From the NCBI GenBank assembly GCA_903928045.1, contig CAIYPH010000515.1, positions 1 through 15,153 of the forward strand: DNA of 15,153 nucleotides, given 5' to 3'. Shown piece by piece: positions 1-14,952 of the stretch. A program made the translations under genes and the position numbers. A model generated the notes under the pieces. That model worked only from the letters and a program-made list of their open reading frames with translations. It was not told the origin of the DNA and did not search any database. Numbering within the stretch: position 1 is the first letter of the stretch; every line of letters begins with the position of its first letter. Origin of the DNA: an uncultured Rhodospirillales bacterium (lineage in GTDB: Bacteria > Pseudomonadota > Alphaproteobacteria > Acetobacterales > Acetobacteraceae).

Positions 1-303
1 GACTTCGCCATCGATGCCGAGCGCGAGCACGGCAAATCCCCCGAAGACGCCATCCGCGAGGCCTGCCTGCTGCGCTTCCGCCCGATCATGATGACCACCA
101 TGGCCGCCCTGCTGGGCGCGCTGCCTTTGGTGCTGGAAAGCGGCACCGGCTCCGAGCTGCGCTTCCCCCTCGGCGTCACCATCGTCGGCGGGCTGCTGCT
201 GTCGCAGTTCCTGACCCTCTACACGACGCCGGCCATCTATCTCGCCTTCGAGCGGGTGCGGCTGGCGTGGGGTGGGGAAAGGAAGGAAGGGGTTCTTTTT
301 TGA
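1..303 (+). CDS. mdtB: RND multidrug efflux permease, MdtB-type, C-terminal end (partial)
   Basis: Only the last 100 codons are inside the window; the reading frame is open from base 1. The residues correspond to the end of TM10 and to TM11-TM12 of an RND (HAE1) inner-membrane proton/drug antiporter, including [19 protein letters not shown], a GSELRFPLG segment and a [17 protein letters not shown] ending. It closely parallels the C-terminus of the complete MdtC-like gene that follows, so these are the paired subunits of an MdtBC-type pump, which in E. coli work as a heteromeric complex with MdtA and TolC. MdtB is assigned from its position before mdtC, not from distinguishing residues. The last residues (about [10 protein letters not shown]) and the TGA stop are encoded by a palindromic repeat that also occurs elsewhere in the window, so the natural C-terminus has probably been replaced. 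The gap to mdtC is 113 bases, whereas such genes are often adjacent or overlapping. Confidence 0.85.
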
Positions 304-325
304 AAAAAAGAACGAAAAAACTTCT
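281..325 (+). repeat. Palindromic A/T-rich repeat, copy A
   Basis: A purine-rich lead (GGAAGGAAGG) is followed by arms GTTCTTTTTT (292-301) and AAAAAAGAAC (304-313) around a 2-base centre, then an A-run and CTTCTG. The outermost position (G291/G314) does not pair, unlike in copies C and D. The same arrangement recurs at 11974, 12057, 13652, 13811 and 14818. The stop codon of the upstream RND gene (301-303) lies inside this palindrome. No second, inverted copy is seen before mdtC; the right-hand side holds an unrelated GC-rich hairpin instead. Confidence 0.85.
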
Positions 326-350
326 GACGCGTAGCACAGCGGAGCGGCGA

Positions 351-401
351 CGGGAGCGGCAGCGGATCGCCTTCGATCCGCGAGAGCGCTGCCCGCTTCC
401 T
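351..401 (+). other. GC-rich hairpin just upstream of mdtC
   Basis: A perfect 8-bp stem, GCGGATCG (362-369) with CGATCCGC (374-381), has a CCTT tetraloop. An alternative outer stem pairs GGCAGCG (358-364) with CGCTGCC (387-393) and can be extended with a bulge to GGGAGC/GCTTCC. No U-run follows, so a classical intrinsic terminator is unlikely. It lies 16 to 66 bases before the mdtC start and could influence translation or mRNA stability between the two pump genes. The function is inferred only from structure and position. Confidence 0.5.
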
Positions 402-416
402 TTGAGCGCCTAGCCC

Positions 417-3400
417 ATGAGCTTCTCGGACGTCTTCATCAGGCGGCCGGTGGCGACGGTGTTGCTGTCGCTCGGGCTGATGATATCGGGCATCGTCGCC
501 TACCACTTCCTGCCGGTGGCGCCGCTGCCGAGCGTGGATATTCCGACCATCGTGGTGTTCGCCTCAAGGCCGGGGGCGGACCCGGAGACGGTGGCCAATT
601 CGCTGGCGGCGCCACTGGAGCGGCGCTTGGGGGTGATTCCGGGGGTGACGGAGATTACCTCGACCTCTTCGGTCGGCAACACCTCCATCGTCATCCAGTT
701 CGATCTCAAGCGCGACATCGACGGCGCGGCGCATGACGTGCAGGCGGCGATCAACGCCGCCATCGCCGATTTGCCGGGCGATTTGCCGATCCGGCCCTAT
801 TTCCGCAAGTTCAACCCGGCCGAGACGCCGATCATGACGATCGCGCTGACCTCGGAATCCATGTCGATGGGCCAGGTCTACGACGCCGCCGACAGCATCC
901 TCGCCCAGCGGCTGAGCCAGGTGGAGGGCGTGGCGCAGGTGACGGTGAATGGCGCCGAGAAGCCGGCGGTGCGGGTGCGCATCAACCCGGTGGAACTCGC
1001 CAATGCCGGGCTCGCCGCGCAGGATGTCTTCACCGTCATCCGGGCCGCCAACACCAACGGGCCGACCGGTGGCTTCCAGGGGGCGGACCGGGCGGAGAGC
1101 ATCGGCCTCAACAACCAGCTGAACCGCGCCGCCGATTACCGCCCGCTGGTGATCAAGTCCGCCAATGGCGCCGTGGTGCGCCTCGGCGATGTGGCGGAGG
1201 TGGTGGACGCCACCGCCAATGCGCGGCTCTCGGCGAGCTTCAACGCCAAGCCGGCGATCCTGCTCAGCATCACCAAATCCACCAACGCCAACGTGATCGA
1301 GACGGTGGACAACGTGCGCGCCGTGCTGCCGCTGCTGCAAAGCTGGATGCCCGCGGATATCCAGCTCACCATCCTGTCCGACCGCACGACCACCATCCGC
1401 GCCTCGGTGAATGACGTGCAGATCAGCCTCGCCATCTCGGTGGTGCTGGTGCTGCTGGTGGTGCTGCTGTTCATGCGCGCCGCGGTGCCCACCATCGCGG
1501 CGGCGGTGACGGTGCCGCTGTCGCTGGCCGGCACGCTGGCGGCGATGTGGTTCTGCGGCTACTCGCTCAACAATTTCACGCTGATGGCGCTCACCATCTC
1601 GGTCGGCTTCGTGGTGGACGACGCGATCGTGATGATCGAGAACATCATGCGCCACCGCGCGATGGGCAAACCGCCGCTCCAGGCCGCGCTCGATGGCGCG
1701 CGGCAGATCGGCTTCACCGTGCTGTCGATCTCGCTCTCGCTGGTCGCGGTGTTCATCCCCATCACCTTCATGGGGGGCGTGATGGGCAAGCTGTTTCACG
1801 AATTCGCCGCCACGATGACGCTGGCGATCGTGGTCTCGGCGGCCGTCTCGCTGTCGCTGACCCCCATGCTGTGCGGCCGCTTCATGAAGGATGCGCCACC
1901 CGCCACCGCCGGTTTCTGGCACGCGATCGACCGCGGGATCGAGCGCGGCTTCGGCTGGGTGCTCGGCCTCTACGCGGCCACGCTGGGCTGGGCGTTGCGC
2001 CATCGCCTGCTGATGGGCCTCTCCACCATCGCGGTGATGGGGCTCACCGTGTGGCTCTACACGGTCATGCCCAAGGGCTTCCTGCCGACCCAGGACACCG
2101 GGCTGATCTGGGGCGGCACGCTGGCCGACCCCTCGATCTCGTTTGCCGCCATGCAGGAGCGCCAGCGCCAGGCGGTGGCGATCATCTCGGCCGACCCCGC
2201 GGTGGCCGGTGTCGGCTCCACCGTCGGCGTCACCTCCGGCTGGGCCTCGCTCAACCGCGGGCAGATGACGGTGAGCCTCAAGCCGCTGCGCGAGCGCGGG
2301 CTGTCGTCGGAGGCGGTGATCGCCCGGCTGCGCCCGCTGCTCGCCCGCGTCGGCGGGTTGCAGACCTTCCTGTTCTCCGCCCAGGAGCTGCGCGGCGGCG
2401 GGCGGCAGGGCGGCTCCACCCAGTTCGTCCTGGTCTCCCCCGACCTCGCCGAACTGCGCACCTGGACGCAGCGGCTGGAGGACAGGCTGCGCGAGATCCC
2501 GGAAGTGACCGACGTCTCCTCCGACCAGGACCGCGCCGGCCCCCAGGCCGACGTGGTGATCGACCGCGCCCAGGCCGCCCGCCTCGGCGTCTCCGTCGCG
2601 GCGGTGGATAACGCGCTCAACAACGCCTTCGCCCAGCGGCAGATCTCCATCATCTACGCCGCCCGCAACCAGTATCGCGTGGTGCTGGAAACCAGCCCCG
2701 CCTTGCAGACCGACCCGGCGATGCTCGACCGCGTGTTTCTCGCCGGCCCCGCCGGCGCCAGCATCCCGCTGCGCAGCGTCGTCACGGTGGACCGCAGCAC
2801 CGCCCCCCTCGCAGTGCGCCACCAGGGCCAGTATCCGGCCGCCACCATCACCTTCAACGTGCCGGAGGGGGTTGCGAACGGCACCGCGCTCCAGGCCGTG
2901 CAGGCCGCCTATGAGGGCCTGGTGATGCCCGACACCATCCGCGCCAATTTCGCGGGGAATGCCCGCTTCATCACCGAGAGCCTGAGCTCCCAGCCGCTGC
3001 TGATCTCCGCCGCACTGCTCACCATCTACATCGTGCTCGGCGTGCTCTACGAAAGCCTCCGCCAGCCCGTCACCATCCTCTCCACCCTCCCCTCCGCCGG
3101 GCTCGGCGCCCTGGTCGCGCTGTGGCTGGGCGGGTTCGACCTCTCGATCATGGCCATCATCGGCGTGCTGCTGCTGATGGGGATCGTCAAGAAAAACGCC
3201 ATCATGATGGTGGATTTCGCCCTGGAGGAGGAACGCCAGCACGGAAGCTCCCCCGAGAAGGCGATCCATGCCGCCTGCCTCGAGCGCTTCCGCCCCATCC
3301 TGATGACCACCCTGGCCGCCCTGCTCGGCGCCTTGCCGCTGGCCTTCGCCTTCGGCACCGGCGCCGAACTGCGCCAACCCCTCGGCATCTCCATCATCGG

Positions 3401-3479
3401 CGGCCTGCTGGTCTCCCAGATCCTCACCCTCTACACCACCCCCATCGTCTACCTGGCCCTGCAACGCCGCCGGGTGTGA
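417..3479 (+). CDS. mdtC: RND multidrug efflux permease, MdtC-type
   Basis: The product has 1020 residues, close to the usual size of about 1025 for MdtC. It is an inner-membrane proton-driven drug exporter of the RND/HAE1 family, acting with a membrane-fusion protein and an outer-membrane channel that are not in the window. Visible marks are TM1 beginning with FIRRPVATVLLS, the porter-domain start LPVAPLPSVDIPTI (about 32-45), the TM4 proton-relay pair D401-D402 in GFVVDDAIVMIENI, the TM10 segment GIVKKNAIMMVDF with the relay Lys at about 926, and a C-terminus [19 protein letters not shown]. Long stretches match E. coli MdtC as I remember it, including FNPAETPIM, FGQRQIS-like and TILSTLPSAG segments, which makes the assignment firm. 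The ATG at 417 is chosen because it gives the canonical MSFSDVFIRRPVA start; no strong Shine-Dalgarno sequence precedes it. The gene ends 31 bases from the convergent deacylase gene. Confidence 0.95.
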   Translation: MSFSDVFIRRPVATVLLSLGLMISGIVAYHFLPVAPLPSVDIPTIVVFASRPGADPETVANSLAAPLERRLGVIPGVTEITSTSSVGNTSIVIQFDLKRDIDGAAHDVQAAINAAIADLPGDLPIRPYFRKFNPAETPIMTIALTSESMSMGQVYDAADSILAQRLSQVEGVAQVTVNGAEKPAVRVRINPVELANAGLAAQDVFTVIRAANTNGPTGGFQGADRAESIGLNNQLNRAADYRPLVIKSANGAVVRLGDVAEVVDATANARLSASFNAKPAILLSITKSTNANVIETVDNVRAVLPLLQSWMPADIQLTILSDRTTTIRASVNDVQISLAISVVLVLLVVLLFMRAAVPTIAAAVTVPLSLAGTLAAMWFCGYSLNNFTLMALTISVGFVVDDAIVMIENIMRHRAMGKPPLQAALDGARQIGFTVLSISLSLVAVFIPITFMGGVMGKLFHEFAATMTLAIVVSAAVSLSLTPMLCGRFMKDAPPATAGFWHAIDRGIERGFGWVLGLYAATLGWALRHRLLMGLSTIAVMGLTVWLYTVMPKGFLPTQDTGLIWGGTLADPSISFAAMQERQRQAVAIISADPAVAGVGSTVGVTSGWASLNRGQMTVSLKPLRERGLSSEAVIARLRPLLARVGGLQTFLFSAQELRGGGRQGGSTQFVLVSPDLAELRTWTQRLEDRLREIPEVTDVSSDQDRAGPQADVVIDRAQAARLGVSVAAVDNALNNAFAQRQISIIYAARNQYRVVLETSPALQTDPAMLDRVFLAGPAGASIPLRSVVTVDRSTAPLAVRHQGQYPAATITFNVPEGVANGTALQAVQAAYEGLVMPDTIRANFAGNARFITESLSSQPLLISAALLTIYIVLGVLYESLRQPVTILSTLPSAGLGALVALWLGGFDLSIMAIIGVLLLMGIVKKNAIMMVDFALEEERQHGSSPEKAIHAACLERFRPILMTTLAALLGALPLAFAFGTGAELRQPLGISIIGGLLVSQILTLYTTPIVYLALQRRRV

Positions 3480-3510
3480 GGGGCGGAGAGAAAGGCCAGG
3501 GCTCCGCCCC
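3480..3510. terminator. Hairpin filling the gap between two convergent genes
   Basis: GGGGCGGAG (3480-3488) pairs perfectly with CTCCGCCCC (3502-3510) around a 13-base loop. The hairpin occupies the whole space between the mdtC stop (3477-3479) and the stop of the convergent deacylase gene (3511-3513). This is the expected position for a shared bidirectional terminator. No T-run follows on either strand, so it may act as an mRNA 3'-end stabiliser or with Rho. Confidence 0.6.
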
Positions 3511-4548
3511 TCAGTCCCGGAAGGCGCGCAGGCGGCCGGTGACGAGGATATGCTGCCCCTGGGCGACCGGGGCGGCCCAGGCCTGGGCGATGATGATGCC
3601 GTCGACGCCGGCTTTCACCTCCCAGGGGGGCAGGTCGATGCGGTCGAAATCATGCAGGCGGCCGACGGTGGTGCCCTTGGTGACGATCTCGCCGCATTCG
3701 ATGAGGGGTTCGTAGTGCCCGGCGAAGGGGCAGACGGTGAAGCAGTCGCGGTCGACCATTTCGGCCATGTGCTGGGTGCCGGCGGCGTGGTGGGCGATTT
3801 TGTCGATGTGGCCGCGGAGCTGGCCGTGATGGATGGCCGCCGCGGTGACGCCATGGCGGGCGTAGCGCACGCCCGAGGCCTGCACCGCGCCGCCCCAGCC
3901 CAACTCGGTGCCGATGGTGATTTTACCGAGGCGTTCGGCTTCCGAGGGCAGCAGGCCGGGGGTTTCGTTCTGATAGGTGATGACCAGCGGGGTGCCGAAC
4001 CAGCGGGCGGTCTGCTCGATGCGGCGGCTTTGCGCGGGGTCCTCGATCGGGTGGAAGGAGGTGCATTGGGTGAAGCGCGCCACCTGGCCGCCGGCGTGCA
4101 GGTCGATCACCACATGGACATGGGGCCAGATCGCGGCGCGCACGAAGGCGGCGATGCGGTGGGTGATGCCAGCGAGCCCGGCGCCGCGCCCGGCGCCATC
4201 GACGAAGGCGCGGTTGAGGTTCACGCGGTCATCGAGCGAGGAATCGCGGGTGCCGGCGCGGAAGGCGGCGACGTTGAGCACGGGGACGAGGATGATGCGC
4301 CCGGCGACGTCCTCCAGGCGGAAATCATCCATGAGATGGCGGATTGCCATCGGGCCTTCGTATTCGTTGCCGTGGTTGGAGCCGAAGCAGACCAGGCCCT
4401 GGCCGGGTTTGGCCGATGGGCCGACCATGACGGTGAGGGGGATGAGATGGTCGCCCCAGATGCTGTCGTGCTCGAGGGCGACGTGATAGTCGCGCCGGCC
4501 AGGGGATTCTAGGTCAAGTTCGTGCGGGCGGACAATGCTGCGTTCCAT
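3511..4548 (-). CDS. Zinc-dependent deacylase, succinylglutamate desuccinylase/aspartoacylase (AstE/M14-like) family
   Basis: The product has 345 residues. The family hydrolyses N-acyl amino acids or related amides in the cytoplasm. Zinc-binding residues are visible as H59 and E62 in GSNHGNEYEG and H151 in VVIDLHAGG. R101 and the DDRVNLNRAF segment (107-115) match the family's substrate-binding arginine and LNR signature, and E215 in GTELGWGG fits the general-base position. The C-terminal 100 residues form the expected small beta-rich domain. The ATG at 4548 lies 2 bases after the TGA of the upstream enolase-superfamily gene (TGA-CC-ATG), which implies one transcript and translational coupling. 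A longer frame reaches 4908, but that part overlaps the upstream gene and has no family resemblance. Relatives act on succinylglutamate, N-acetylaspartate or N-acetyl-diaminobutyrate (DoeB); no neighbouring arginine or ectoine gene points to one of these, so I leave the substrate open. Confidence 0.9.
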   Translation of the reverse strand: MERSIVRPHELDLESPGRRDYHVALEHDSIWGDHLIPLTVMVGPSAKPGQGLVCFGSNHGNEYEGPMAIRHLMDDFRLEDVAGRIILVPVLNVAAFRAGTRDSSLDDRVNLNRAFVDGAGRGAGLAGITHRIAAFVRAAIWPHVHVVIDLHAGGQVARFTQCTSFHPIEDPAQSRRIEQTARWFGTPLVITYQNETPGLLPSEAERLGKITIGTELGWGGAVQASGVRYARHGVTAAAIHHGQLRGHIDKIAHHAAGTQHMAEMVDRDCFTVCPFAGHYEPLIECGEIVTKGTTVGRLHDFDRIDLPPWEVKAGVDGIIIAQAWAAPVAQGQHILVTGRLRAFRD

Positions 4549-4550
4549 GG

Positions 4551-5723
4551 TCAGTTCACCCTGTGGGAAGCGATGAAATCGGTATCCACGGTGACGCCGA
4601 TCCCCGGCGTATCGGGGATGGGGACGCAGCCATCCTCGTCCAGCGTGAAGCTGGCCCGCGCGATACCGGCGGTGAGCGGGGATTGGCTGACGTTGAATTC
4701 CACGAAGCGGGCGCGTGGCAGGGTGGCGATGAGCTGCAGCGAATAGCCGGTCAGTAGATGGGTGAGCCAGGAATGCGGCACCAGGTCGATCCCCGCTTCC
4801 TCGGCCATGCCCGCCACTTTGGCGGCGACCGTGATGCCGCCACAGCGGGAGAGATCGGGCTGGATCACGTCGACGCAGCCTTGCCCGATGAAGCGCTCGA
4901 ACTCCCAATGCGTCGCCACCTGCTCGCCGGCGGCGATATGCACCGGGCTCTCGGCGCGCACCGCGGCATACTCGTCAAACCGCTCGGGATGGATGAAATC
5001 CTCGCACCAGCCGACGTTGTAGTCCCCGAGCATGCGCACCAGCGCGATGTTCTCGCGCCGCGAGCGCGGGCGGAAATCGCCCTTCCAGCCCGCGGGATAC
5101 CAGCCGGGATCGACCAGCAAATGCCGCGCCGGCCCCAACGCCTCGCGCCCGGCCGCCACCAGCTCGCGATCGCGCCCGGGGTCCTCCCCGAACACGCCCC
5201 AGCCGAATTTCACCGCCTGGAATCCGCGCTCCACATAGCCGCGCGCGGCCGCATGCATCGCCTCCGGCGTCTCGCGGAACAGCGTCGAGGCATAGGCCAT
5301 CACGCGGTCCCGCCGCCGCCCGCCGAGCAGCCGGGCCAGCAACATGCCGGCGGCCTCGGCGCGGATCGACCACAGACAGTTGTCGAGCGCCGACATGCAC
5401 TGCATGCCGATCCCCCGCCGGCCGTAATAGGCGCTGCCGATGTAGAGCTTGTCCCACAGCCGGGCGACGTCGAGCGGGTTCTCGCCGATCAGCAGCTCAC
5501 CCAGCGTGCGGAAGCCGAGGATGGACATGCCCTGACCCGCGATGATGGCGGCGGCGGCGGGGGCGAGGGTTTCCACATCGGCCCAGCCGGTGATCCCGGC
5601 ATCCGTCGCCACCCGCACGATCAACTGCCAGTCGCCGTTGTCAGTCGCCTCCTCCGCCCCGGCGGAGGCCTGGTAGGTGGCACCGCCCCGCAGCAGGATC
5701 GGCTCAACCTCGGTGATGCGCAT
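4551..5723 (-). CDS. Enolase-superfamily enzyme, mandelate racemase/muconate lactonizing type
   Basis: The product has 390 residues, normal for the family. These cytoplasmic Mg-dependent enzymes abstract a proton next to a carboxylate; most bacterial members dehydrate sugar acids or racemise/cycloisomerise acids. Metal ligands are D205 (LLVDPGWYP), E241 (WCEDFIHPE) and E267 (IAAGEQVATHWE). The mandelate-racemase-type His-Asp dyad is D290 in QPDLSRCGGIT with H317 in VPHSWLTH. The usual KxK on the opposite face reads K172-F-G (AVKFGWG), so only the first Lys is kept. The start at 5723 (MRITEVEPI) is preferred because it gives the standard family N-terminus and follows AAGGGGA on the coding strand. 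An in-frame ATG at 5747 has no plausible ribosome site. The chosen start and ribosome site lie in a strong stem-loop (5721-5773). The gene is followed 2 bases later by the deacylase gene and preceded 58 bases away by the chemoreceptor gene on the same strand. A sugar-acid dehydratase is the best guess. Confidence 0.9.
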   Translation of the reverse strand: MRITEVEPILLRGGATYQASAGAEEATDNGDWQLIVRVATDAGITGWADVETLAPAAAAIIAGQGMSILGFRTLGELLIGENPLDVARLWDKLYIGSAYYGRRGIGMQCMSALDNCLWSIRAEAAGMLLARLLGGRRRDRVMAYASTLFRETPEAMHAAARGYVERGFQAVKFGWGVFGEDPGRDRELVAAGREALGPARHLLVDPGWYPAGWKGDFRPRSRRENIALVRMLGDYNVGWCEDFIHPERFDEYAAVRAESPVHIAAGEQVATHWEFERFIGQGCVDVIQPDLSRCGGITVAAKVAGMAEEAGIDLVPHSWLTHLLTGYSLQLIATLPRARFVEFNVSQSPLTAGIARASFTLDEDGCVPIPDTPGIGVTVDTDFIASHRVN

Positions 5724-5773
5724 CCCGGCGTCCCCTTGTTTGGCCATAGGAGGCCCAACAAGGCGCCGGGATG
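5721..5773 (-). promoter_or_regulatory. Long stem-loop covering the ribosome site and start codon of the enolase-superfamily gene
   Basis: On the plus strand, CATCCCGGCG (5721-5730) pairs with CGCCGGGATG (5764-5773), CCTTGTT (5734-5740) with AACAAGG (5757-5763), and GGCC (5742-5745) with GGCC (5752-5755). This gives 21 base pairs interrupted by a 3-base bulge (5731-5733) and one mismatch, with a 6-base loop (5746-5751). In the minus-strand transcript the 3' arm holds the AAGGGGA ribosome site and ends exactly with the ATG. The chemoreceptor stop codon lies 8 bases before it. It could lower translation of the enzyme relative to the chemoreceptor or mark a processing site; no U-run follows, which argues against an intrinsic terminator. 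Confidence 0.7.
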
Positions 5774-5781
5774 CAAGAGGG

Positions 5782-7782
5782 TCAGGCGGCGCGCACTCCG
5801 GCGGTGAAGGTTTGAACCTCGCGTGACAGGCTGGCGGCTTCACGGGCCAGGTCGCCGGAGGCGGCCAGGAGCTGGCTGGCCGCCTGCCCGGTGTCGTGCG
5901 CGGCATGGGAGACGCCGGTGATGTTTTCGGTGACGTCCTGGGTGCCGATCGCGGCCTGCTGCACGGTGCGGGCGATCTCCTGGGTCGCCGCGCCCTGTTC
6001 CTCCACCGCGGCGGCGATACTGGCGGCGATGCGGCTGACCTCGGCGATGGTGGTGACGATGCCGCTGATCGCCTCCACCGCCTCGCCGGTGGCGGCTTGG
6101 ATCTGGCTGACCTGCTGGCCGATATCGCCGGTGGCCTTGGCGGTCTGATTGGCCAGAGACTTCACCTCGGAGGCCACGACCGCGAAGCCCTTGCCGGCGT
6201 CCCCGGCGCGCGCCGCCTCGATGGTGGCGTTGAGCGCGAGCAGGTTGGTCTGCCCGGCAATGGTGTTGATCAGCCCCACCACGTCGCCGATCCGCCGCGC
6301 CCCTTCGGCGAGGGCCTGCACGATGCCATCGGTGCGCGCCGCGTCCTGGGCGGCGCGGGCGGTGATGTCGGCGGATTGCGCGACCTGGCGGCTGATCTCG
6401 CCGATCGAGCTGCCAAGCTCCTCGGCCGAGGCGGCCACGGTCTGCACATTGGCGCTCATCTGCTGCGCGGCCACCGAGACGGCTGAGGCCTGGGCGGTGG
6501 TCTGCTCGGCGGTGGCCGTCATGGTCGTGGCGGTGGCTTCGAGGCCCCCGGCGGCCTGCGCCAGGCCGGCGGTGAGGGCGCCGACCTTGGCCTCGAAATC
6601 CGTCACCAGCGCGGCCAGCGCGGCGGCGCGGCGCTCCTTCGCCTCGTGCTCCGCGCGCTGCTCGCTGGCCAGTTGGCGCGCGGCGATGCCGTTCTGCTTG
6701 AACACTTCGACCGCGCGCGCCATGGCGCCGATCTCATCGGTTGCGTCCCGCGCGGGGACCTCAACGTCGAGCTCGTTGCCGGCCAGGCGGGTCATCACCG
6801 AGGTCATCGCGGCGAGGGGGCGGGTGATCGAGCGGGCGACCAGGAGGGCCAGGAACAAGCCGCCAAATAAACCGGTGGCCGCGATGGTGACCGACCAGGA
6901 CCTGGCGGAGGCGGCGGCCGCCACCGCCTGGTTGGAGGCGTCGGAGACGACCTGCTGCATGCTAGCTGCGATCCGCTCCAGCTCCGCGTGCATGTCGATG
7001 ACCAGGGGCCGCAGCGTGCCGTCGAAATACGCCATCGGCGCGGTGATTGCGGCACTGGCCGCCTCGAAGGCCGCGCGGTGGGCCTGGGTGGCGGCGCGCA
7101 CCTTGACGATCGCGCGGCCAAGGTCCGGCGTCGCCATGGCCTCCAGCGCGTCCACCGCGGCCGCGGCGCGCTCGGCGTTGGCCTTGTAGGCGGTGATCTC
7201 CGCGGCGTTGCGGCTGGCCAGGAAGTGCCAGACCGAAAGATCGGCCTGCATGATCCGCTGCCGCACGTCCTCCGAGGAGCCGATGGTGATCTCGTCGTGG
7301 CTGGATTGCGCGACATCCATCATGTCGGTCGTCGCGCCGATCAGCTCGGCCCCGGCCTTTGCCAGGGAGGCCTGCGCGCGCGCGGCGTCCTTGACGAGGT
7401 CCTGCAGCCGGGCGGCGCCGGTCACCTGCTGCGCCAGACGGTCCGATAAACTGCGATAGCTGGCCAGCCGCTCTTGTGAGGTCGTGCTGGCCGCGGCCTC
7501 GCTCAGCCATTCCTTGATGGCCGCCTGGCTTACCTGCATCTCGCGGTAGGAGGCCTCATCGTTTTCGTGGATGACCCGCAACTGCTGCCGGCGGATGGCC
7601 TCCAGCCCCGCCTCCATCCGTGAGACCCGCATCATGCTGGCACTGACCCGCATGAGGGTCTCGCGCTGCGTCGTTTGTTGCGCGAGCCCCCACAGGCCAG
7701 TGCCGGCCAGTGCGATCGCAATCATGATGAGCGCGGTGAAGCCAAGATAAAGCCGGGTGCGCAGGGCAAGGCGAGGCAGCAT
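5782..7782 (-). CDS. Methyl-accepting chemotaxis protein with large periplasmic helical sensor
   Basis: The product has 666 residues and is a transmembrane chemoreceptor that would signal to CheW/CheA. Order of parts: short cytoplasmic N-terminus, TM1 (about 12-33), an all-helical periplasmic region (about 34-296), TM2 (about 297-318), HAMP (about 319-370, starting [13 protein letters not shown]), then the long cytoplasmic coiled coil. Its conserved hairpin tip is [23 protein letters not shown] at about 505-527, followed by [15 protein letters not shown]. The periplasmic part is about 260 residues, nearer to a helical bimodular (HBM) sensor than to the shorter four-helix-bundle type; HBM sensors known elsewhere bind small organic acids. 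No C-terminal CheR-docking pentapeptide is present (it ends AGVRAA). The start at 7782 ([15 protein letters not shown]) places the membrane segment right after the start and has AGGAA about 10 bases upstream; a longer frame to 7863 lacks a ribosome site. It is the first gene of the minus-strand block. Confidence 0.92.
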
Positions 7783-7924
7783 GTGGGCGGGTTCCTGTCG
7801 GGCGGTATCCGGCCCAGTCGTGGCCGTCGCGGCCAAAATGCGCCGTCTTTCTTGCCCAACCATGAATCGTGTCGCGCAACCGGCGCCGATTCACCGCCGC
7901 CGTCCCGAAATCAGCGATGGAACA

Positions 7925-7955
7925 TCGACACCTCAGCGGCTATGATTATTATAAT
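7925..7955 (+). promoter_or_regulatory. Candidate sigma-70-type promoter of the importer operon
   Basis: TCGACA (five of six matches to TTGACA) and a perfect TATAAT are separated by 19 bases. The -10 lies within the palindrome at 7944-7956 and about 84 bases before the start codon at 8039. In such GC-rich DNA a perfect TATAAT is noteworthy, but the long spacer lowers confidence. Confidence 0.45.
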
Positions 7956-7956
7956 C
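7944..7956. promoter_or_regulatory. 13-base palindrome, candidate operator
   Basis: GATTAT (7944-7949) and ATAATC (7951-7956) are perfect inverted copies around one base. The site overlaps the candidate -10 of the importer promoter, where a bound regulator would block transcription. No regulator gene is in the window, so the binding protein is unknown. Confidence 0.45.
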
Positions 7957-8038
7957 TTCGACACCGACCCAATCAGGTGCACGCCCATCGCCATCACGGC
8001 GACGGCGCGAGAAGAACACAAGAGGAGACGACCGGACC

Positions 8039-9343: not shown

Positions 9344-9350
9344 CCGGCCG

Positions 9351-10274
9351 GTGAGCGCGACCGTCACCCCGGTGCCGACACGGCGCCGGGGGCTGGTCTG
9401 GCTGATCGACAACGAACGGAGCCTCGGCTACCTGCTGGTGGCGCCCGTCGTCATCCTCATGCTCGGGCTGGTGGCCTATCCGTTCTGCGTCGCCCTCGGC
9501 TACGCGCTCACCGACCGCACCTTGGCGGACCCCGGCGTGTTCGTCGGGCTCGATAACTTCATCGACCTGTTCGACAACCAGATCTACCTGCAGACGCTGC
9601 GCAACACCTTCATCTTCACCGCCGGCTCGGTGGCGATGCGCCTCGTGTTCGGCGTCGGGCTGGCACTGCTGCTGAACGAGCATTTCCGCTTCCGCCGGCT
9701 GATCCGCTCGGCGGTGCTGCTGCCCTGGATCGTGCCCACCGTGCTCGGCACCATGGCCTGGCTGTGGATGTTCAACCCGAATTTCTCGGTGCTGAACTGG
9801 ATGCTGGTGCATTCCGGCCTGATGAAGGACGGCTTCAACTGGCTGACCAACCCGGATCTCGCGCTATTCTGCGTCACTCTGGTCAACGCCTGGCGCGGCA
9901 CGCCGTTCATGGCGATCACCGTGCTGGCCGGGCTACAGGCCATCCCGCATGACCTCTACGACGCCTCGGCGATCGACGGCGCCGGCAAGTTCCAGCGCTT
10001 CCGCTACGTCACCCTGCCGCTGGTGATGCCGGTGCTGCTCACCGCGCTGGTGCTGTCGATCATCTGGACCTTCTCGGATTTCGGCATCGTCTACGGCCTC
10101 ACCAAAGGCGGCCCGATGAACGCGACCCAGGTGCTGGCGACGCTCTCCTTCCAGCAGGGCCTCGCCGCCGGCAATATCGGCGAGGGGGCGGCGATTTCGC
10201 TCACCATGCTGCCGGTGTTGCTCATCCTCATCATCTGGCAATTGCGCCGCATCCGCCGGAGCACGGTTGCATGA
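9351..10274 (+). CDS. ABC sugar-type transporter permease, MalF/UgpA-like
   Basis: The product has 307 residues with about six membrane segments. It is one of two permeases forming the inner-membrane channel for the substrate delivered by the upstream binding protein. TM1 is YLLVAPVVILMLGLVAYPF; the cytoplasmic EAA loop that contacts the ATPase reads DLYDASAIDGAGKFQRFRYV followed by TLPL (about 200-223). The start is a GTG at 9351, 7 bases after the binding-protein stop. The next in-frame ATG lies inside TM1 and would delete part of it, so GTG is preferred despite a weak ribosome site. The stop overlaps the next permease's start (ATGA, 10271-10274), showing translational coupling. An FNPNFSVLNWML segment between TM helices fits the MalF/UgpA-like group. 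Confidence 0.92.
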   Translation: MSATVTPVPTRRRGLVWLIDNERSLGYLLVAPVVILMLGLVAYPFCVALGYALTDRTLADPGVFVGLDNFIDLFDNQIYLQTLRNTFIFTAGSVAMRLVFGVGLALLLNEHFRFRRLIRSAVLLPWIVPTVLGTMAWLWMFNPNFSVLNWMLVHSGLMKDGFNWLTNPDLALFCVTLVNAWRGTPFMAITVLAGLQAIPHDLYDASAIDGAGKFQRFRYVTLPLVMPVLLTALVLSIIWTFSDFGIVYGLTKGGPMNATQVLATLSFQQGLAAGNIGEGAAISLTMLPVLLILIIWQLRRIRRSTVA

Positions 10275-11143
10275 GCACCAAGCTGCAACCCGGCGAAATC
10301 CGCGGCAACAGCCCGCGCATGGAGCGCTGGCTGTTCTTCTACATCCCGATGTTCTTCGCGCTGTTCTTCCTGGTCGGCCCCTTCTACTGGATGCTGATCA
10401 CCGCGCTGAAGCCGGACAGCGAGTTGTACGACGGCGCCAAGAGCCCGCTCTACGTCGCCACCCCCTCGCTCGATCATTTCCGCTTCCTGTTCGAGAAGAC
10501 CGAGTTCGTCACCTGGACCTGGAACACCATGATGGTGGCGACGCTCTCCACCTTCATCGCGCTCGCGATGGGCGTGCCGGCCGGCTACGCCCTGGCGCGC
10601 CTGCGCTTCCGCGGCTCGGAGCTGATCGGCACCGCGATTTTCGTCACCTATCTCGTGCCGTCCTCGCTGCTGTTCATCCCGATGGTGGAGGTGATGGCGC
10701 AGCTGCACCTCGATGACAGCATCTGGGCGCTGGTGGTGGTCTACCCGACCTTCCTGGTGCCCTTCGTCACCTGGCTGATGAGCGGCTATTTCCGCACCAT
10801 CCCCGCCGAGCTGGAGGATTGCGCCCGCATCGACGGCATGACCCGCCTCGGCGCGATGTGGCGCATCGCCATCCCCCTGGCCCGGCCCGGCATCCTCTCG
10901 GCCGGCATCTTCGCCTTCACCCTGTCGTGGAACGAGTTCATCTACGCGCTCACCTTGGTCACCGCCTCGGCGGAACGCACCATCCCCGTCGGCGTGCTGG
11001 TGCAGCTCACCCGGGCCGATTTCTACTTCTGGGGACCGCTGATGGCCGGCGCCCTGCTGGGCTCGGTCCCCGTCGCCATCGTCTATTCATTTTTCGTCGA
11101 CCAATACGCCTCCGGCCTCACCGCCGGTGCCGTGAAAGGGTAG
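10271..11143 (+). CDS. ABC sugar-type transporter permease, MalG/UgpE-like
   Basis: The product has 290 residues with about six membrane segments, the second half of the import channel. TM1 is FFYIPMFFALFFLVGPFYWMLITALKP, typical of MalG-like proteins. The EAA loop reads LEDCARIDGMTRLGAMWRI followed by AIPLARPG (about 180-206). The C-terminal end, VYSFFVDQYASGLTAGAVKG, matches the usual family ending (Q..F..GLTAGAVKG), so the protein is full length. Its ATG overlaps the upstream permease stop by 4 bases. The gene ends 5 bases before the SDR, so all four genes from 8039 to 11973 are likely on one mRNA. No ATP-binding subunit follows; an unlinked, shared ATPase of the MsmK/UgpC kind probably energises the importer. 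Confidence 0.93.
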   Translation: MSTKLQPGEIRGNSPRMERWLFFYIPMFFALFFLVGPFYWMLITALKPDSELYDGAKSPLYVATPSLDHFRFLFEKTEFVTWTWNTMMVATLSTFIALAMGVPAGYALARLRFRGSELIGTAIFVTYLVPSSLLFIPMVEVMAQLHLDDSIWALVVVYPTFLVPFVTWLMSGYFRTIPAELEDCARIDGMTRLGAMWRIAIPLARPGILSAGIFAFTLSWNEFIYALTLVTASAERTIPVGVLVQLTRADFYFWGPLMAGALLGSVPVAIVYSFFVDQYASGLTAGAVKG

Positions 11144-11148
11144 CTGGA

Positions 11149-11973
11149 ATGCAGATGTTCGATCTCACCAACCGCGTCGCCGTCGTCACCGGCAGTGCCC
11201 AGGGCATGGGCCGCGCCATGGCCCTCGCGCTGGCCGAAGCCGGCGCCAGCCTCGTCCTGCTCGACCGCAACGCCGCCGGCATCGAGGAGACCGCCCACGC
11301 CATCGCCCAGACGGGCCGCAAATCCCTCCCCATCGCCGGTGACGTCACCGATTTCGCCCATATCGACAGCGTCTTCGCCACCGTCGACCGCGAATTCGGC
11401 CGCATCGACGTCCTCGGCAACGTCGCCGGCGAGGCCAGGCCCGGCCCCGCCGAGGACATGGCGATCACCGACGTCCAGCGGAATTTCCACAACCTGGTGA
11501 TCTCCCGCTACTACACCTGCCAGCACGCCGGCCGCCGCATGCTCGCCCAGGGCCGCGGCAGCATCATGAGCATCGGCTCCATCTCCGGCGTCACCTCGCT
11601 CGGCCGCGAGCAATCCGTCTACGGCATGTGCATGGCCGCCGTAATCCACATGACCCGCGAACTCAGCACCGAATGGGCCCCCCGCGGCGTGCGCGTCAAC
11701 TGCATCCTCCCCGCCCAGGTCGTCGGCGCCAACGGCCTCGGCCCGCGCATGGAAGCCGACCCCTTCCTCGCCGAAACCTTCCTCCGCGGCATCCCCGTCG
11801 GCCGCTTCGGCCAGCCCGACGACATCCGCGGCCTCTCCGTCCTCCTCGCGTCCGACGCCGCAAGCTGGATCACCGGCGCCATCATCCCGATGGACGGCGG
11901 CAACCTCGCCCTCAACGGCGGCGGCGGGCTGCTCGCGCCGCTCATGGAGAAATACGGCGCCAAGCCGAAGTAA
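11149..11973 (+). CDS. Short-chain dehydrogenase/reductase family protein with altered active site
   Basis: The product has 274 residues with a Rossmann fold: TGSAQGMG (14-21) is the glycine-rich cofactor motif, and D39 after the second strand suggests NAD rather than NADP. D65-V66 follows the third strand, and the C-terminal signature ends in DGGNLALNGG (249-258). The usual NNAG reads N91-V-A-G. The catalytic Tyr is Y158, preceded by S144 (S-I-S-G), but the active-site Lys expected at 162 is Met: YGMCM where relatives have YxxxK. The DNA (tac ggc atg tgc atg) leaves no doubt about the reading. The start at 11149 (MQMFDLTNRVAVV) is 5 bases after the permease stop; a longer frame from 10819 only overlaps the permease. 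Being last in the importer operon, it would be expected to act on the imported compound, but the Lys-to-Met change makes normal SDR catalysis doubtful. A non-enzymatic or changed role is possible. Confidence 0.88.
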   Translation: MQMFDLTNRVAVVTGSAQGMGRAMALALAEAGASLVLLDRNAAGIEETAHAIAQTGRKSLPIAGDVTDFAHIDSVFATVDREFGRIDVLGNVAGEARPGPAEDMAITDVQRNFHNLVISRYYTCQHAGRRMLAQGRGSIMSIGSISGVTSLGREQSVYGMCMAAVIHMTRELSTEWAPRGVRVNCILPAQVVGANGLGPRMEADPFLAETFLRGIPVGRFGQPDDIRGLSVLLASDAASWITGAIIPMDGGNLALNGGGGLLAPLMEKYGAKPK

Positions 11974-12026
11974 GGAAGCAAGCGCCTCTTTTTGAAAAAA
12001 GAAGCAAAAACTTTCTATCCGTTCGG
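11974..12026 (+). repeat. Palindromic A/T-rich repeat, copy B
   Basis: It begins directly after the SDR stop codon with a purine-rich lead (GGAAGCAAGC), then arms GCCTCTTTTT (11984-11993) and AAAAAGAAGC (11996-12005), with one mismatch, then CAAAAACTTT and TATCCGTTCGG. It is the GC-type (GAAGC) form. It faces copy C, 30 bases away, in inverted orientation. Confidence 0.85.
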
Positions 12027-12056
12027 CACCGCACTCTCCCGTGAAGGAGGCGAAGC

Positions 12057-12120
12057 AAACGGATATAAGTTTTTTGGTTCTTTTTTTCCAAAAAAGAACC
12101 CCTTGCCTTCCCTCCCTTCC
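12057..12120 (-). repeat. Palindromic A/T-rich repeat, copy C (inverted relative to B)
   Basis: On the minus strand it reads from a purine-rich lead through the palindrome to an A-run and ATCCGTTT. The arms are GGTTCTTTTTT (12076-12086) and AAAAAAGAACC (12090-12100). It is the GG-type (GAACC) form. Its purine-rich side faces the downstream carotenoid-oxygenase gene, which starts 37 bases further on. Confidence 0.85.
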
Positions 12121-12157
12121 TTACGCCCATACTCGTTCCAAATCAGCGGAGGACACC

Positions 12158-13651
12158 ATGCGCATCACCCGGCGGGACCCCGTGCGCGCCACCCTGGCGC
12201 CCAGCAACCACCCTTACCTCAACGGCGCCCACACCCCCCTGCACGAGGAGGTCGACGCCGAAGCGCTCGACGTCATCGAGGGCCGCATCCCCCGCGATAT
12301 CGATGGCGTCTACCTCCGCAACACCCAGAACCAGGTGCACCAGCCCGTCGGCCGCTTCCACCCCTTCGACGGCGACGGCATGCTGCACGCCATCAGCTTC
12401 CGCGACGGCCAGGCCAACTACCGCAACCGCATGGTCCGCACCAAAGGCTTCCAGGCCGAACAGGAGGCCGGCCACTCCATCTGGGCCGGCACCATGGAGA
12501 ACCCGAAAAAGTCCCTCCGCCCCGGCTGGGGCTCCCACGGCGCCATCAAGGACGCCTCCTCCACCGACGTCGTCGTCCACGCCGGCCAGGTGCTCTCCAC
12601 CTACTACCAATGCGGCGAAGGCTACCGGCTCGACCCCTACACCATGGAGAACCTCGGCACCGAAGGCTGGGTCCCGCTCGACGGCATCTCCGCCCACCCC
12701 AAGGTCGACGAACGCACCGGCGAACTCCTCTTCTTCAACTACTCCAAACACGCCCCCTACATGCATTACGGCGTGGTCGACCGGCACAACCGCCTCACCA
12801 CCTACATCCCCGTGCCGCTCCCCGGCCCCCGCCTGCCGCACGACATGATCTTCACCGCCAACTACTCCATCCTCAACGACTTCCCCCTCTTCTGGGACCC
12901 CGAACCCCTCGCCCAGGGCCGCCACGTCGTCCGCTTCTTCGAAAACATCCCCTCCCGCTTCGCCATCATCCCCCGCCACGGCCGCACCGAGGATATCCGC
13001 TGGTTCGAATCCTCCCCCACCTTCGTCCTCCACTGGATCAACGCCTACGAAGACGGCGACGAAATCGTCGTCGACGGCTACCACCAGCAAAACCCCATGC
13101 CGGAATCCCCCAAGGAAGCCCCCACCGGCTATGAACGCATGATGGTCTATCTCGACCAGCACGCCATGGGCACCCGCCTGCACCGCTGGCGCTTCAACCT
13201 GCGCACCGGCACCACCCGCGAGGAGCGGCTGGACCCCCGCATCCTCGAATTCGGCATGATGAACGCCCGCCAGACCGGCCTGCCCTACCGCTACGCCTAC
13301 TCCGCCGAAGCCAAACCCGGCTGGTTCCTCTTCACCGGCCTGGTCAAGCACGACCTCGCCACCGGCGCCTCCCAGTCCCTCTCCTTCGGCCCCGACCGCT
13401 TCGGCAGCGAAGCCCCCTTCGCGCCCCGCCTCGACAGCAAAGCCGAAGACGACGGCTACCTCGTCAGCTTCATCACCGACGAACGCACCCACGAATCCGA
13501 ATGCATCCTCGTCGACGCCCAACACGTCGAAGACGGCCCCGTCTGCCGCATCCGCCTCCCCCACAAAATCAGCAGCGGCACCCATGCGACCTGGGCGTCA
13601 CGGGCGGATATCGAGGGCGGACGGCTATTCCGCCTCTCGCACATGGATTGA
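12158..13651 (+). CDS. Carotenoid oxygenase (RPE65/CCD/lignostilbene dioxygenase) family protein
   Basis: The product has 497 residues and belongs to the seven-bladed beta-propeller, non-haem iron enzymes that split double bonds of carotenoids, apocarotenoids or hydroxystilbenes with O2. The four iron-binding histidines are all present: H180 (SAHPKVDERTGELLFF), H228 (LPHDMIFTANY), H292 (FVLHWINAYEDGDEIVVDG) and H476 (GTHATWA). An early FDGDGMLH segment (70-77) and YRLDPYTMENLG (156-167) are also family signatures. The ATG at 12158 follows CGGAGGA at a good distance. Longer frames to 12041 or 11992 would translate the palindromic repeats and are rejected. Codons end in C to an unusual degree (33 C against 11 G in bases 12181-12240). 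Repeat pairs sit on both sides, separating it from the importer operon. The substrate cannot be told; plant-type carotenoid, stilbene or lignin-dimer cleavage are the options. No carotenoid-synthesis gene is nearby. Confidence 0.93.
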   Translation: MRITRRDPVRATLAPSNHPYLNGAHTPLHEEVDAEALDVIEGRIPRDIDGVYLRNTQNQVHQPVGRFHPFDGDGMLHAISFRDGQANYRNRMVRTKGFQAEQEAGHSIWAGTMENPKKSLRPGWGSHGAIKDASSTDVVVHAGQVLSTYYQCGEGYRLDPYTMENLGTEGWVPLDGISAHPKVDERTGELLFFNYSKHAPYMHYGVVDRHNRLTTYIPVPLPGPRLPHDMIFTANYSILNDFPLFWDPEPLAQGRHVVRFFENIPSRFAIIPRHGRTEDIRWFESSPTFVLHWINAYEDGDEIVVDGYHQQNPMPESPKEAPTGYERMMVYLDQHAMGTRLHRWRFNLRTGTTREERLDPRILEFGMMNARQTGLPYRYAYSAEAKPGWFLFTGLVKHDLATGASQSLSFGPDRFGSEAPFAPRLDSKAEDDGYLVSFITDERTHESECILVDAQHVEDGPVCRIRLPHKISSGTHATWASRADIEGGRLFRLSHMD

Positions 13652-13707
13652 AGGAAGGAAGCGGTTCTTTTTTGAAAAAAAGAACCAAAAAACTTTTATC
13701 CGTTTGG
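13652..13707 (+). repeat. Palindromic A/T-rich repeat, copy D
   Basis: It starts at the base after the carotenoid-oxygenase stop codon with AGGAAGGAAGC. The arms are GGTTCTTTTTT (13663-13673) and AAAAAAGAACC (13676-13686), perfect over 11 bp around a 2-base centre, followed by AAAAAACTTTTATCCGTTTGG in the next 21 bases. GG-type. It faces copy E about 100 bases away. Confidence 0.88.
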
Positions 13708-13752
13708 AGTCTGGTGGAGACACTGGCACTTCTGGATGCTTGCTCCGCGCGT

Positions 13753-13784
13753 GGCCCGGATGACGCGCAGCGAAATCCGGGTCC
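13753..13784. repeat. REP-like palindrome inside the D-E pair
   Basis: CCCGGAT (13755-13761) pairs with ATCCGGG (13775-13781) around a 13-base GC-rich loop (GACGCGCAGCGAA). This resembles a CCCGGATgxxGCGxAGCGAAATCCGGG-type intergenic element that I remember as widespread in proteobacterial genomes, and it differs in sequence from the A/T-rich repeat around it. Chance is possible, but the match to a familiar intergenic motif is good. Confidence 0.6.
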
Positions 13785-13810
13785 CCATCTCCCCCAGACA
13801 GCCCCAAACC

Positions 13811-13864
13811 CAACGGATCAAAAAGTTTTTGCTTCTTTTTTCAAAAAGAAGCGCTTCCTTCCCT
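13811..13864 (-). repeat. Palindromic A/T-rich repeat, copy E (inverted relative to D)
   Basis: Arms GCTTCTTTTT (13831-13840) and AAAAAGAAGC (13843-13852) are perfect over 10 bp. The purine-rich lead (on the minus strand) touches the stop codon of the second SDR gene (13865-13867). GC-type. The right side reads AAAAACTTTTTGATCCGTTGG on the minus strand, close to copy D. Confidence 0.88.
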
Positions 13865-14773
13865 TCACCCTCTCCCCACCCCAGCCGCCTTCGCATACTC
13901 CGGATTGCGAAACCGCTCGAACGTAGTTTCGGTATCCCGATACCCCGGCTGCGCCGTCTCCCCGAACGCCGCCACCAGCGCCGCGTGCCGCTCCTCGATA
14001 TGCCCGCGATACTCCGGGTGCGGGATGATATAGAGCGCGTTCGCCTCGATCGCCCGCAGCACCTTGCGCCCCACGAACACCGGGTCCATCCGCTGCGCCT
14101 GCTCGATCCGCAGCGCCTCGGAGCCCTCGGTCGCCAACCCCTCGAACGCGTCCGGCAGGCGCGCCCGCACCGCCACCGAGCTTGCGAACAAATTGCTCCG
14201 TACGCCGCCGGGGCATAGCACGCTCACCCCGATCCCCGCCGGCGCCAGCTCGGCGCGCAGCGATTCCGACAGCCCGACCACCGCGAATTTCGAGGCGCAA
14301 TAGGCCGCGATCCCCCCCGGCGCCATCAGCCCGCCGGTCGAGGCGGTGTTGACGATATGCCCGCTTTGTCCCCGCGCCAGCATCCGCCGCGCCACCGCCC
14401 GCGCGCCGAGGAACGCCCCGGTGGCGTTGATCTCCAGCACCATCCGCCACAGCGCCTCCGGCATCTCCGCCACCGCCGTCGCCCGCCCGTCGGCAAACCG
14501 CCCCTGGCCGACCCCGGCGTTGTTGCACAGGATCTCCACCTTCCCGAGCGCGGCCTCCACCGCATCCAACGCCGCCTCCCACTGCTCGGCTTGCGTCACG
14601 TCGAGCGTCACCGCGGCGCCCAGCCCCGGCAGATCCAGCGCCGCGAGCGCCGCCTCATTGATGTCGGCAACCGCCACACGCAGCCCCGCGGCGATAAACG
14701 CCTTCGCCATCCCGAGCCCGATCCCGCTCGCCCCCCCGGTGATCAACGCCACCCTGCCCGCCAGGTTTTCCAT
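13865..14773 (-). CDS. Short-chain dehydrogenase/reductase, LigD-like tail
   Basis: The product has 302 residues, a classical SDR with C-terminal extension. Visible are the cofactor motif TGGASGIG (12-19), D37 after strand two (NAD preference), D58-V59, NNAG (84-87), N116, and catalytic S145, Y158 and K162 (YCASK). All are intact, so it should be an active NAD-dependent alcohol dehydrogenase or ketone reductase. The segment ANALYIIPHPEYRGHIEERH (about 251-270) resembles the EDNALYIIPYPE-type tail I remember from LigD-like Calpha-dehydrogenases of lignin dimers, although other SDR subgroups may share it. The start at 14773 (MENLAGRVALITGG) has AGAGGG about 6 bases upstream; a longer frame to 14827 runs into a repeat. 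It is convergent with the carotenoid-oxygenase gene. A role in aromatic-dimer oxidation would fit that neighbour but is only inference. Confidence 0.92.
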   Translation of the reverse strand: MENLAGRVALITGGASGIGLGMAKAFIAAGLRVAVADINEAALAALDLPGLGAAVTLDVTQAEQWEAALDAVEAALGKVEILCNNAGVGQGRFADGRATAVAEMPEALWRMVLEINATGAFLGARAVARRMLARGQSGHIVNTASTGGLMAPGGIAAYCASKFAVVGLSESLRAELAPAGIGVSVLCPGGVRSNLFASSVAVRARLPDAFEGLATEGSEALRIEQAQRMDPVFVGRKVLRAIEANALYIIPHPEYRGHIEERHAALVAAFGETAQPGYRDTETTFERFRNPEYAKAAGVGRG

Positions 14774-14817
14774 CGCACCCTCTGCTTGTGACGCCCGTGA
14801 TGCTGGCGCACGCGGCG

Positions 14818-14870
14818 AGGAAGGCAAGCGCTTCTTTTTTGAAAAAAAGAAGCAAAACTTTTATCCGCTT
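14818..14870 (+). repeat. Palindromic A/T-rich repeat, copy F
   Basis: A purine-rich lead (AGGAAGGCAAGC) faces the start of the second SDR gene. Arms GCTTCTTTTTT (14830-14840) and AAAAAAGAAGC (14843-14853) are perfect over 11 bp, then AAAACTTTTATCCGCTT. GC-type. No inverted partner is seen before the next gene at 14953. Confidence 0.87.
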
Positions 14871-14916
14871 TCTTCCCGCCTTCGCAAAAAATCTTCACCT
14901 TCGCGCATTTTTTCTC

Positions 14917-14950
14917 TTGTATGTCGATGACGATGAGATTAAACATACAA
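14917..14950. promoter_or_regulatory. Inverted repeat just before the last gene
   Basis: TTGTATGT (14917-14924) and ACATACAA (14943-14950) are perfect 8-base inverted copies with 18 bases between, ending 2 bases before the ATG at 14953. It could be an operator for a dimeric regulator or a leader hairpin that affects access to the start codon. No Shine-Dalgarno sequence lies between it and the ATG. Confidence 0.45.
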
Positions 14951-14952
14951 AC

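What the first reader, a model, noticed from the sequence alone, without database searches (positions are those of the whole stretch)
281..14870. Six-copy family of A/T-rich palindromes with covarying arms
Copies at about 281, 11974, 12057, 13652, 13811 and 14818 share a purine-rich lead, a near-perfect palindrome of T- and A-runs, a second A-run and an ATCCGTT-like end. The closing pairs switch together: GGTTC with GAACC (C, D; A matches except its outermost base) or GCTTC with GAAGC (E, F; B with one mismatch). Paired changes imply selection on the hairpin or cruciform, not just shared descent. The elements are low-GC islands in GC-rich DNA, and the A- and T-runs could also bend DNA. They do not look like ordinary intrinsic terminators, since no U-run directly follows the stem. 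What they do is unknown to me.
Basis: partly seen in the sequence, partly recalled or inferred. Interest (0 to 1): 0.8.

Follow-up and report, generated by a model that had tools for sequence, protein, structure and literature searches.

The report
Three-armed A/T hairpin repeat family
The six palindromes belong to a large family of short repeated DNA hairpins, up to about 1,200 per genome in relatives of this acetic-acid-bacteria lineage, often sitting just after gene ends, and a third A-rich arm changes in step with the hairpin as if three strands fitted together.

Summary
In detail: all six copies exist and the closing pair covaries. No host genome is held, so relatives were used. The palindrome occurs in 69 of 200 family genomes (42 with at least 10 copies, maximum 1211) but 3 of 385 class genomes, two of them family members. 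Copies are extragenic (6 of 308 in called genes); 206 of 362 lie in inverted tail-to-tail pairs, and pair units are dispersed repeats. Of 169 copies with a stop codon upstream, 99 begin 6-16 nt after it. Closing pair: 95% Watson-Crick, 48% expected. This is a REP/BIME-like family without GTAG or CGTC tag.

Unexpected is the 'second A-run': its length equals the inner stem in 308 of 328 parsed copies, and it carries G where the stem's pyrimidine strand carries C (47 of 49; antiparallel 3 of 49), the mirror rule of a fold-back purine triplex. Mixed stem types come mainly from two genomes, so shared descent remains a rival. Window copy F breaks the length rule. Triplex formation and function are inferred, not shown. 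Ordinary intrinsic termination is not supported.

The parts
277..324 (+). Copy A: purine lead, hairpin GGTTC..GAACG, linker G, third arm A6, CTTC. The upstream frame reads into it and stops at TGA in the hairpin loop (301-303)
276..392 (+). Copy A plus a G/C-rich hairpin: matches six listed copies, 90-96% identical, in G001 (four) and G002 (two)
11974..12022 (+). Copy B: starts directly after the stop of the SDR gene (ends 11973); X=T5, third arm A5
12060..12111 (-). Copy C: inverted partner of B; X=T6 with a 3-nt loop, third arm A6
11974..12112 (.). B-C inverted pair unit with central hairpin; MFE -53.3 and -59.5 kcal/mol on the two strands, z about -6; orthologous pair in L001 and L002 between the same two genes; several dozen listed copies, 82-90% identical on the same strand, in G001 and G002
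13653..13704 (+). Copy D: starts directly after the stop of the RPE65-family gene (ends 13651); X=T6, third arm A6
13813..13862 (-). Copy E: directly after the stop of the minus-strand SDR gene (ends 13865); X=T5, third arm A5
13653..13862 (.). D-E inverted pair unit between convergent genes; the 146 nt between its hairpins fold into a central hairpin
14818..14867 (+). Copy F: single, between divergent genes; X=T6 but third arm only A4, an exception to the length rule
13687..13692 (+).

Best explanation
These are copies of a REP/BIME-like family of short non-autonomous palindromic repeats of Acetobacteraceae. The unit is: purine lead (about AAGGAAGG), hairpin N-TTC-X-GA-X'-GAA-N', one linker base (mostly C), third arm Z, CTTTT. 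Over half lie in inverted tail-to-tail pairs around a central hairpin, and the pair is what is seen dispersed. Copies lie outside genes, often just past stop codons. Shown: family, structure, covariation, placement, dispersed copies, and presence or absence at orthologous sites. Inferred: that they spread by copying; that when transcribed the hairpin 6-16 nt after the stop codon acts as a 3'-UTR structure that can slow the terminating ribosome or block 3' exonucleases, as reported for REPs near stop codons in E. coli; and that in single strands (RNA or lagging-strand DNA) arm Z can fold back on the inner stem as a purine third strand. The mobilising enzyme is unknown.
For: Copy number and restriction: 69 of 200 family genomes, 3 of 385 class genomes. 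Dispersed pair units, listed same-strand copies 82-93% alike (listings capped). Extragenic: 6 of 308 in genes; G181 junctions occupied: 31 of 61 convergent, 85 of 304 tandem, 14 of 67 divergent (genes from my own caller). Hairpin 6-16 nt after the stop in 99 of the 169 copies with a stop from -15 to 200 nt upstream, of 305 examined. On an annotated Pseudoroseomonas cervicalis plasmid both halves of a pair lie within 10 nt of annotated stops. Closing-pair covariation 95% vs 48%. Site turnover. Third arm: equal length 308 of 328, shuffle maximum 200; C to G 47 of 49; mirror rule fits 102 of 105 copies with mixed X. REPs near stops stalling ribosomes: PMC12306157, passages read.
Against: No expression data. 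20 of 225 G181 copies lie between divergent genes, as does window copy F, where a 3'-end role makes no sense. 136 of 305 copies have no same-direction stop within 200 nt of their lead, many being the far half of a pair. The pairs at 5713 and 18910 of L100 are absent from G132 and G053, so no single site need be functional. Single halves fold weakly: -11 to -13 kcal/mol, z -0.75 to -2.4. Stem types are unevenly spread: 41 of 49 C-bearing anchored copies come from G181 and 46 of 56 G-bearing ones from G003 (the G003 figure includes L003), so covariation may partly be inherited by type.
Confidence: 0.6

Rival explanations
1. Neutral or selfish MITE-like repeats: an unknown transposase copies the pair unit into short intergenic gaps, with no cellular function; placement after stop codons only reflects where insertion is tolerated.
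For: High within-genome identity; site turnover between relatives; copies between phage structural genes; copies whose hairpin holds the stop codon of the upstream frame (9 of 169; window copy A).
Against: The sharp peak 6-16 nt after the stop; the B-C pair kept at one site in W, L001 and L002 while its central sequence changed; third-arm rule kept in ten stem types. No transposase was identified.
Confidence: 0.45
2. Bidirectional transcription terminators: A-tract, G/C hairpin and T-tract in the tail-to-tail pair end transcripts from both sides.
For: 31 of 61 convergent junctions occupied in the G181 sample; the central hairpin is flanked by A-runs and T-runs.
Against: No terminator-like site in 11900-15153; a short A-run lies between hairpin and T-run; 85 of 304 tandem junctions carry copies in G181, and in the window and viral contigs copies stand between co-directional genes, including phage structural genes; 20 of 225 in divergent gaps; unpaired halves have no U-run after the stem.
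Confidence: 0.15
3. RAYT-mobilised REPs of the classical kind.
For: RAYT matches (NF047646) are commoner in element-rich genomes: 19 of 41 RAYT genomes have at least 10 copies against 23 of 159 others (Fisher p 5e-5; relatedness not corrected).
Against: 23 of 42 element-rich genomes have no RAYT match, among them G123 (893 copies), G174 (675) and G132 (476). By eye, GTAG-type repeats stand beside 13 RAYT frames of the 17 loci and beside those. Elements were found in 4 of the 17 loci and 2 of 7 further ones, in none on both sides of the RAYT within the stretch fetched; the nearest (L203) is about 100 bp upstream with a GTAG repeat in between. Leads and tails carry no GTAG or CGTC.
Confidence: 0.12
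4. Stem and third arm co-change only because each stem type was amplified from one founder copy, with no three-strand constraint.
For: Copies are related; 41 of 49 C-bearing anchored copies are from G181 and 46 of 56 G-bearing ones from G003; among 20 distinct X/Z combinations the C to G match is 5 of 7.
Against: Length and base rules hold in ten types with at least two copies: T5, T6, T7, TTTTCT, TTTTTCT, TTTCTT, TTTCTTT, TTTTCTT, TTTTTGT, TTTGTTT, and with both closing pairs in G188 and G008. Six further combinations with at least two copies depart from the rule, all with X read as T5 or T6 (some are loop ambiguities). A direct-repeat rule fits 46 of 105 and antiparallel pairing 3 of 105, against 102 of 105 for the mirror rule.
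Confidence: 0.35

Closest known systems
REP / BIME elements (GTAG- and CGTC-tagged; PMC3733652, abstract and passages read)
   Same: Short palindromes in high copy number, extragenic, mostly downstream of genes and between convergent or unidirectional genes, in inverted pairs, often close to or supplying stop codons.
   Different: No GTAG or CGTC tag seen; A/T-rich stem in 60-72% G+C DNA; third arm. The paper reports CGTC repeats as missing from Acetobacteraceae; the passages read do not describe this family.
Intrastrand triplex motifs (ITxF, TMECO; PMC4666352, abstract, sections 15, 16, 18 and passages read)
   Same: Three consecutive arms of equal length, Y-loop-R-loop-R, purine-motif class II; intergenic; many copies; sometimes in inverted pairs.
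   Different: TMECO is G/C-rich with 9-nt arms and shows no distance trend to genes; here arms are A/T-rich, 5-7 nt, a 4-bp outer stem lies within the second loop, and many copies abut stop codons. The paper regards 7-nt stems as likely chance and finds G/C-rich motifs more enriched; a term search of its text for Acetobacter, Gluconacetobacter, Acidiphilium and alphaproteobacteria gave 0.
REPs within 15 nt of a stop codon (PMC12306157, passages and section 11 read)
   Same: Same distance window, where REPs are said to stall ribosomes. It also counts 1,369 REPs in Lichenicola cladoniae, an Acetobacteraceae species.
   Different: That count comes from a general palindrome finder; no motif for it is in the text read, so whether it is this family is unknown.
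Enterobacterial RU repeats (PMC2759123, abstract start in a search listing only)
   Same: 103-168-bp small mobile sequences in intergenic regions, likened to MITEs.
   Different: Not compared by sequence.

Membership tests
REP/BIME (general definition) | High-copy, short, palindromic, extragenic | tested here: met
REP/BIME (general definition) | Units in inverted pairs | tested here: met
   61 tail-to-tail neighbours in G181; 103 pairs (gap 30-160 nt) among the 362 copies
GTAG or CGTC REP superfamilies | Unpaired GTAG or CGTC at one end | tested here: not met
   base composition of 305 leads is purine-rich without such a tag; tails are C-A(5-7)-C. No separate motif count was run
RAYT-linked REPs | RAYT gene flanked by the repeat | tested here: not met
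   none of 17 Y1_Tnp loci (13 of them clear RAYT frames) and none of 7 further loci has the element on both sides within the stretch fetched
Intrastrand triplex motif (class II) | Three arms of equal length, Y-R-R, loops 1-6 nt, arms 6-15 nt | tested here: met
   loops 2 and 5 nt if the outer stem is open; T5 types fall below the published minimum arm
Intrastrand triplex motif (class II) | Triplex forms in solution or cell | not testable with these tools
   needs CD, NMR or chemical probing
Intrinsic terminator | G/C stem followed at once by a T-run | tested here: not met
   0 sites in 11900-15153 (copies B-F)
Rfam families | Match at gathering score | tested here: not met
   0 matches in the window

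The most novel reading that the evidence does not exclude
A genome-wide repeat family whose sequence evolution is constrained by a three-stranded fold: stem pyrimidine arm, stem purine arm and a purine third arm keep equal length and change base by base under the reverse-Hoogsteen code (T-A takes A, C-G takes G), alternating with an ordinary hairpin closed by a covarying pair. In the reverse transcript the same rule gives a U/C third strand parallel to the purine arm. This would be comparative evidence for a selected intrastrand triplex at hundreds of gene ends.
Probability: 0.3. Interest if true: 0.82.

Novelty: new variant of a known kind. Interest (0 to 1): 0.6.

Why it matters
In the triplex paper read here (PMC4666352), bacterial intrastrand triplex motifs rest on motif counts, biophysics and footprinting. 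A family with ten stem types offers covariation evidence for a third strand and a set of natural variants to test. It also adds an untagged REP-like family that occupies half of the convergent junctions in one genome sample, with no known mobiliser.

Tried and rejected
Own-genome search: none is held; relatives were used. PF01797 suggested no RAYT in G181, G084 and G123; the better model NF047646 found RAYTs in G181 and a weak partial match in G084, so that argument was dropped and replaced by 23 of 42. The first element finder lost C-G closed copies through greedy matching; its counts are not used. MAFFT alignment A2 shifted the left arms, so no covariance model was built and pair counts were made by script on anchored copies (there the inner stem was required to pair perfectly and Z to be purine and mostly A, so inner-stem covariation and purine content are not evidence from that call). 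A BLAST step inside one search returned nothing because of invalid gap settings; it was rerun. Terminator reading rejected as main explanation. Pairing between the tails of the two halves as cause of the third-arm coupling: halves of different types occur together. Direct-repeat origin of the third arm: fits 46 of 49 C-types but 0 of 56 G-types. Geometry left open: with the outer 4 bp closed, one linker base looks too short for Z to reach the inner stem; with them open the linker is 5 nt.

Paper searches. No listed title or abstract start describes this family; full texts were not read except the passages named, and most subscription papers are not in the library.

Full report
WHAT IS IN THE WINDOW. 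The six palindromes are real. A structural scan for a T-rich/A-rich hairpin followed by an A-rich tail finds exactly six in the window and none in one Markov resampling of each of the five sequence sets, 1.28 Mb in all. B and C form an inverted pair between an SDR gene and an RPE65-family gene; D and E form an inverted pair between that gene and a convergent SDR gene; A lies between an upstream frame that ends in its loop and an AcrB-family gene (the upstream frame is 76% identical in DNA to the end of that gene); F lies between divergent genes. Rfam has no match.

HOW WIDE. No genome is held for the window. Relatives were found through the RPE65-family protein (L001 98%, L002 97%, L003 and L004 86% identical). 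The palindrome pattern occurs 192, 289, 495 and 94 times in their genomes (G001-G004), the reversed control 0 times. In the family of G001 it occurs in 69 of 200 genomes, at least 10 copies in 42, at least 100 in 25, at most 1211 (tallied); single matches in low-count genomes may be chance. The family is taken to be Acetobacteraceae because the record of L004 (G004) bears that name and G004 is among the 200. With the tail added to the pattern, 3 of 385 genomes of the class match: G001, G060 (both family members) and one hit in G318.

ANATOMY. Unit: purine lead, closing pair, TTC, inner stem X, loop mostly GA, X', GAA, closing base, linker base, third arm Z, CTTTT. Of 362 copies in my samples, 206 are in 103 tail-to-tail pairs. 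In G181, 53 of 61 such gaps are 65-69 or 80-84 nt; in G003, 15 of 19 are 85-94. The gap holds a central hairpin, variable in strength. Pair units are repeats: listed same-strand copies of B-C are 82-90% identical in G001 and G002, those of G181 units up to 93%; both listings are capped. Copy A with its flank matches another repeat, 276-392, six listed copies at 90-96%.

STEM COVARIATION. On 338 anchored copies, where inner stem and tail but not the outer pairs were required, the closing pair is Watson-Crick in 320 (C-G 183, G-C 134) against 48% expected from the columns. The next pair outside is Watson-Crick in 42, as expected (13%). The two pairs inside the closing pair show rarer paired variants. 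Of two sites shared by G001 and G002, both keep elements; at one the stem differs on both sides, and there G002 lacks the right half.

WHERE THEY SIT. Genes were called by a codon-usage script, not an annotation pipeline. In four relatives 6 of 308 copies lie in genes, all in G181. Junctions occupied: G181 convergent 31 of 61, tandem 85 of 304, divergent 14 of 67; G003 11 of 40, 23 of 157, 3 of 37. Of 305 copies examined, 169 have a same-direction stop from -15 to 200 nt before the hairpin; 99 of these start 6-16 nt after it and 9 hold the stop inside the hairpin. On the annotated plasmid pL11-B of Pseudoroseomonas cervicalis a pair at 6002-6118 of L135 lies between stops at 5992 and 6123; on pL11-A the right half abuts a stop and the left half faces a start.

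TURNOVER. W, L001 and L002 share the B-C pair at one site; D has counterparts after the same gene in L002 (cut short), L003 and L004, not in L001. The A site holds a half unit in W, a full pair in G002 and a GTAG-type repeat in G001. Between G181 and its congeners, the pairs at 5713 and 18910 of L100 are missing from G132 and G053; 8436, 14809 (right half only) and 16285 have counterparts in G132 and none in G053, a low-copy genome; 9655 was not compared and the pair at 1912 could not be placed. Copies also stand between phage structural genes (portal, tail sheath, baseplate) of viral contigs (60 and 11 stretches; five loci scanned, three checked).

MOBILISER. RAYT matches occur in 41 of 200 genomes. 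They are associated with element-rich genomes (19 of 41 against 23 of 159), which speaks for a link, but 23 of 42 element-rich genomes have none and the RAYT frames read stand beside GTAG-type repeats, judged by eye. The enzyme remains unknown.

FUNCTION. Best guess: structured 3' UTRs that modulate termination of translation and mRNA decay, borne on a semi-selfish repeat. Precedent: REPs within 15 nt of a stop stall ribosomes (PMC12306157, passages). Intrinsic termination is unlikely (tandem and phage-gene placement). The third-arm rule is what a purine-motif fold-back triplex needs (class II motif of PMC4666352); the reverse-Hoogsteen base code is from memory. Whether the triplex forms, and in which strand, is not shown.

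Noticed in passing
L001 10496-10670 (orthologous to window 265-417): A GTAG-type REP pair (GTAGGATGGGT...) occupies the site where the window has copy A and G002 has a full A/T pair: one intergenic site, three different repeats.
   Followed up: partly
window 1-303: The partial frame at the window start reads through the lead of copy A and ends at TGA in its loop, so the repeat supplies the C-terminus of the protein.
   Followed up: partly
L282, L327, L272: Units sit between co-directional phage portal, tail-sheath and baseplate genes.
   Followed up: partly
G181 pair spacing: Gaps between pair halves fall in two classes about 15 nt apart (65-69 and 80-84), with two kinds of spacer sequence.
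   Followed up: no
G188: A recurrent variant with an asymmetric inner stem, CTTCTTTTGACTTCCGAAAAAGAAG, keeps the tail of the TTTTTCT type; unexplained.
   Followed up: no
L002 after 7491: The copy after the RPE65-family gene in L002 breaks off within its tail into unrelated sequence, possibly an insertion.
   Followed up: no
window 14952-15152: A short open frame with no Pfam match.
   Followed up: no
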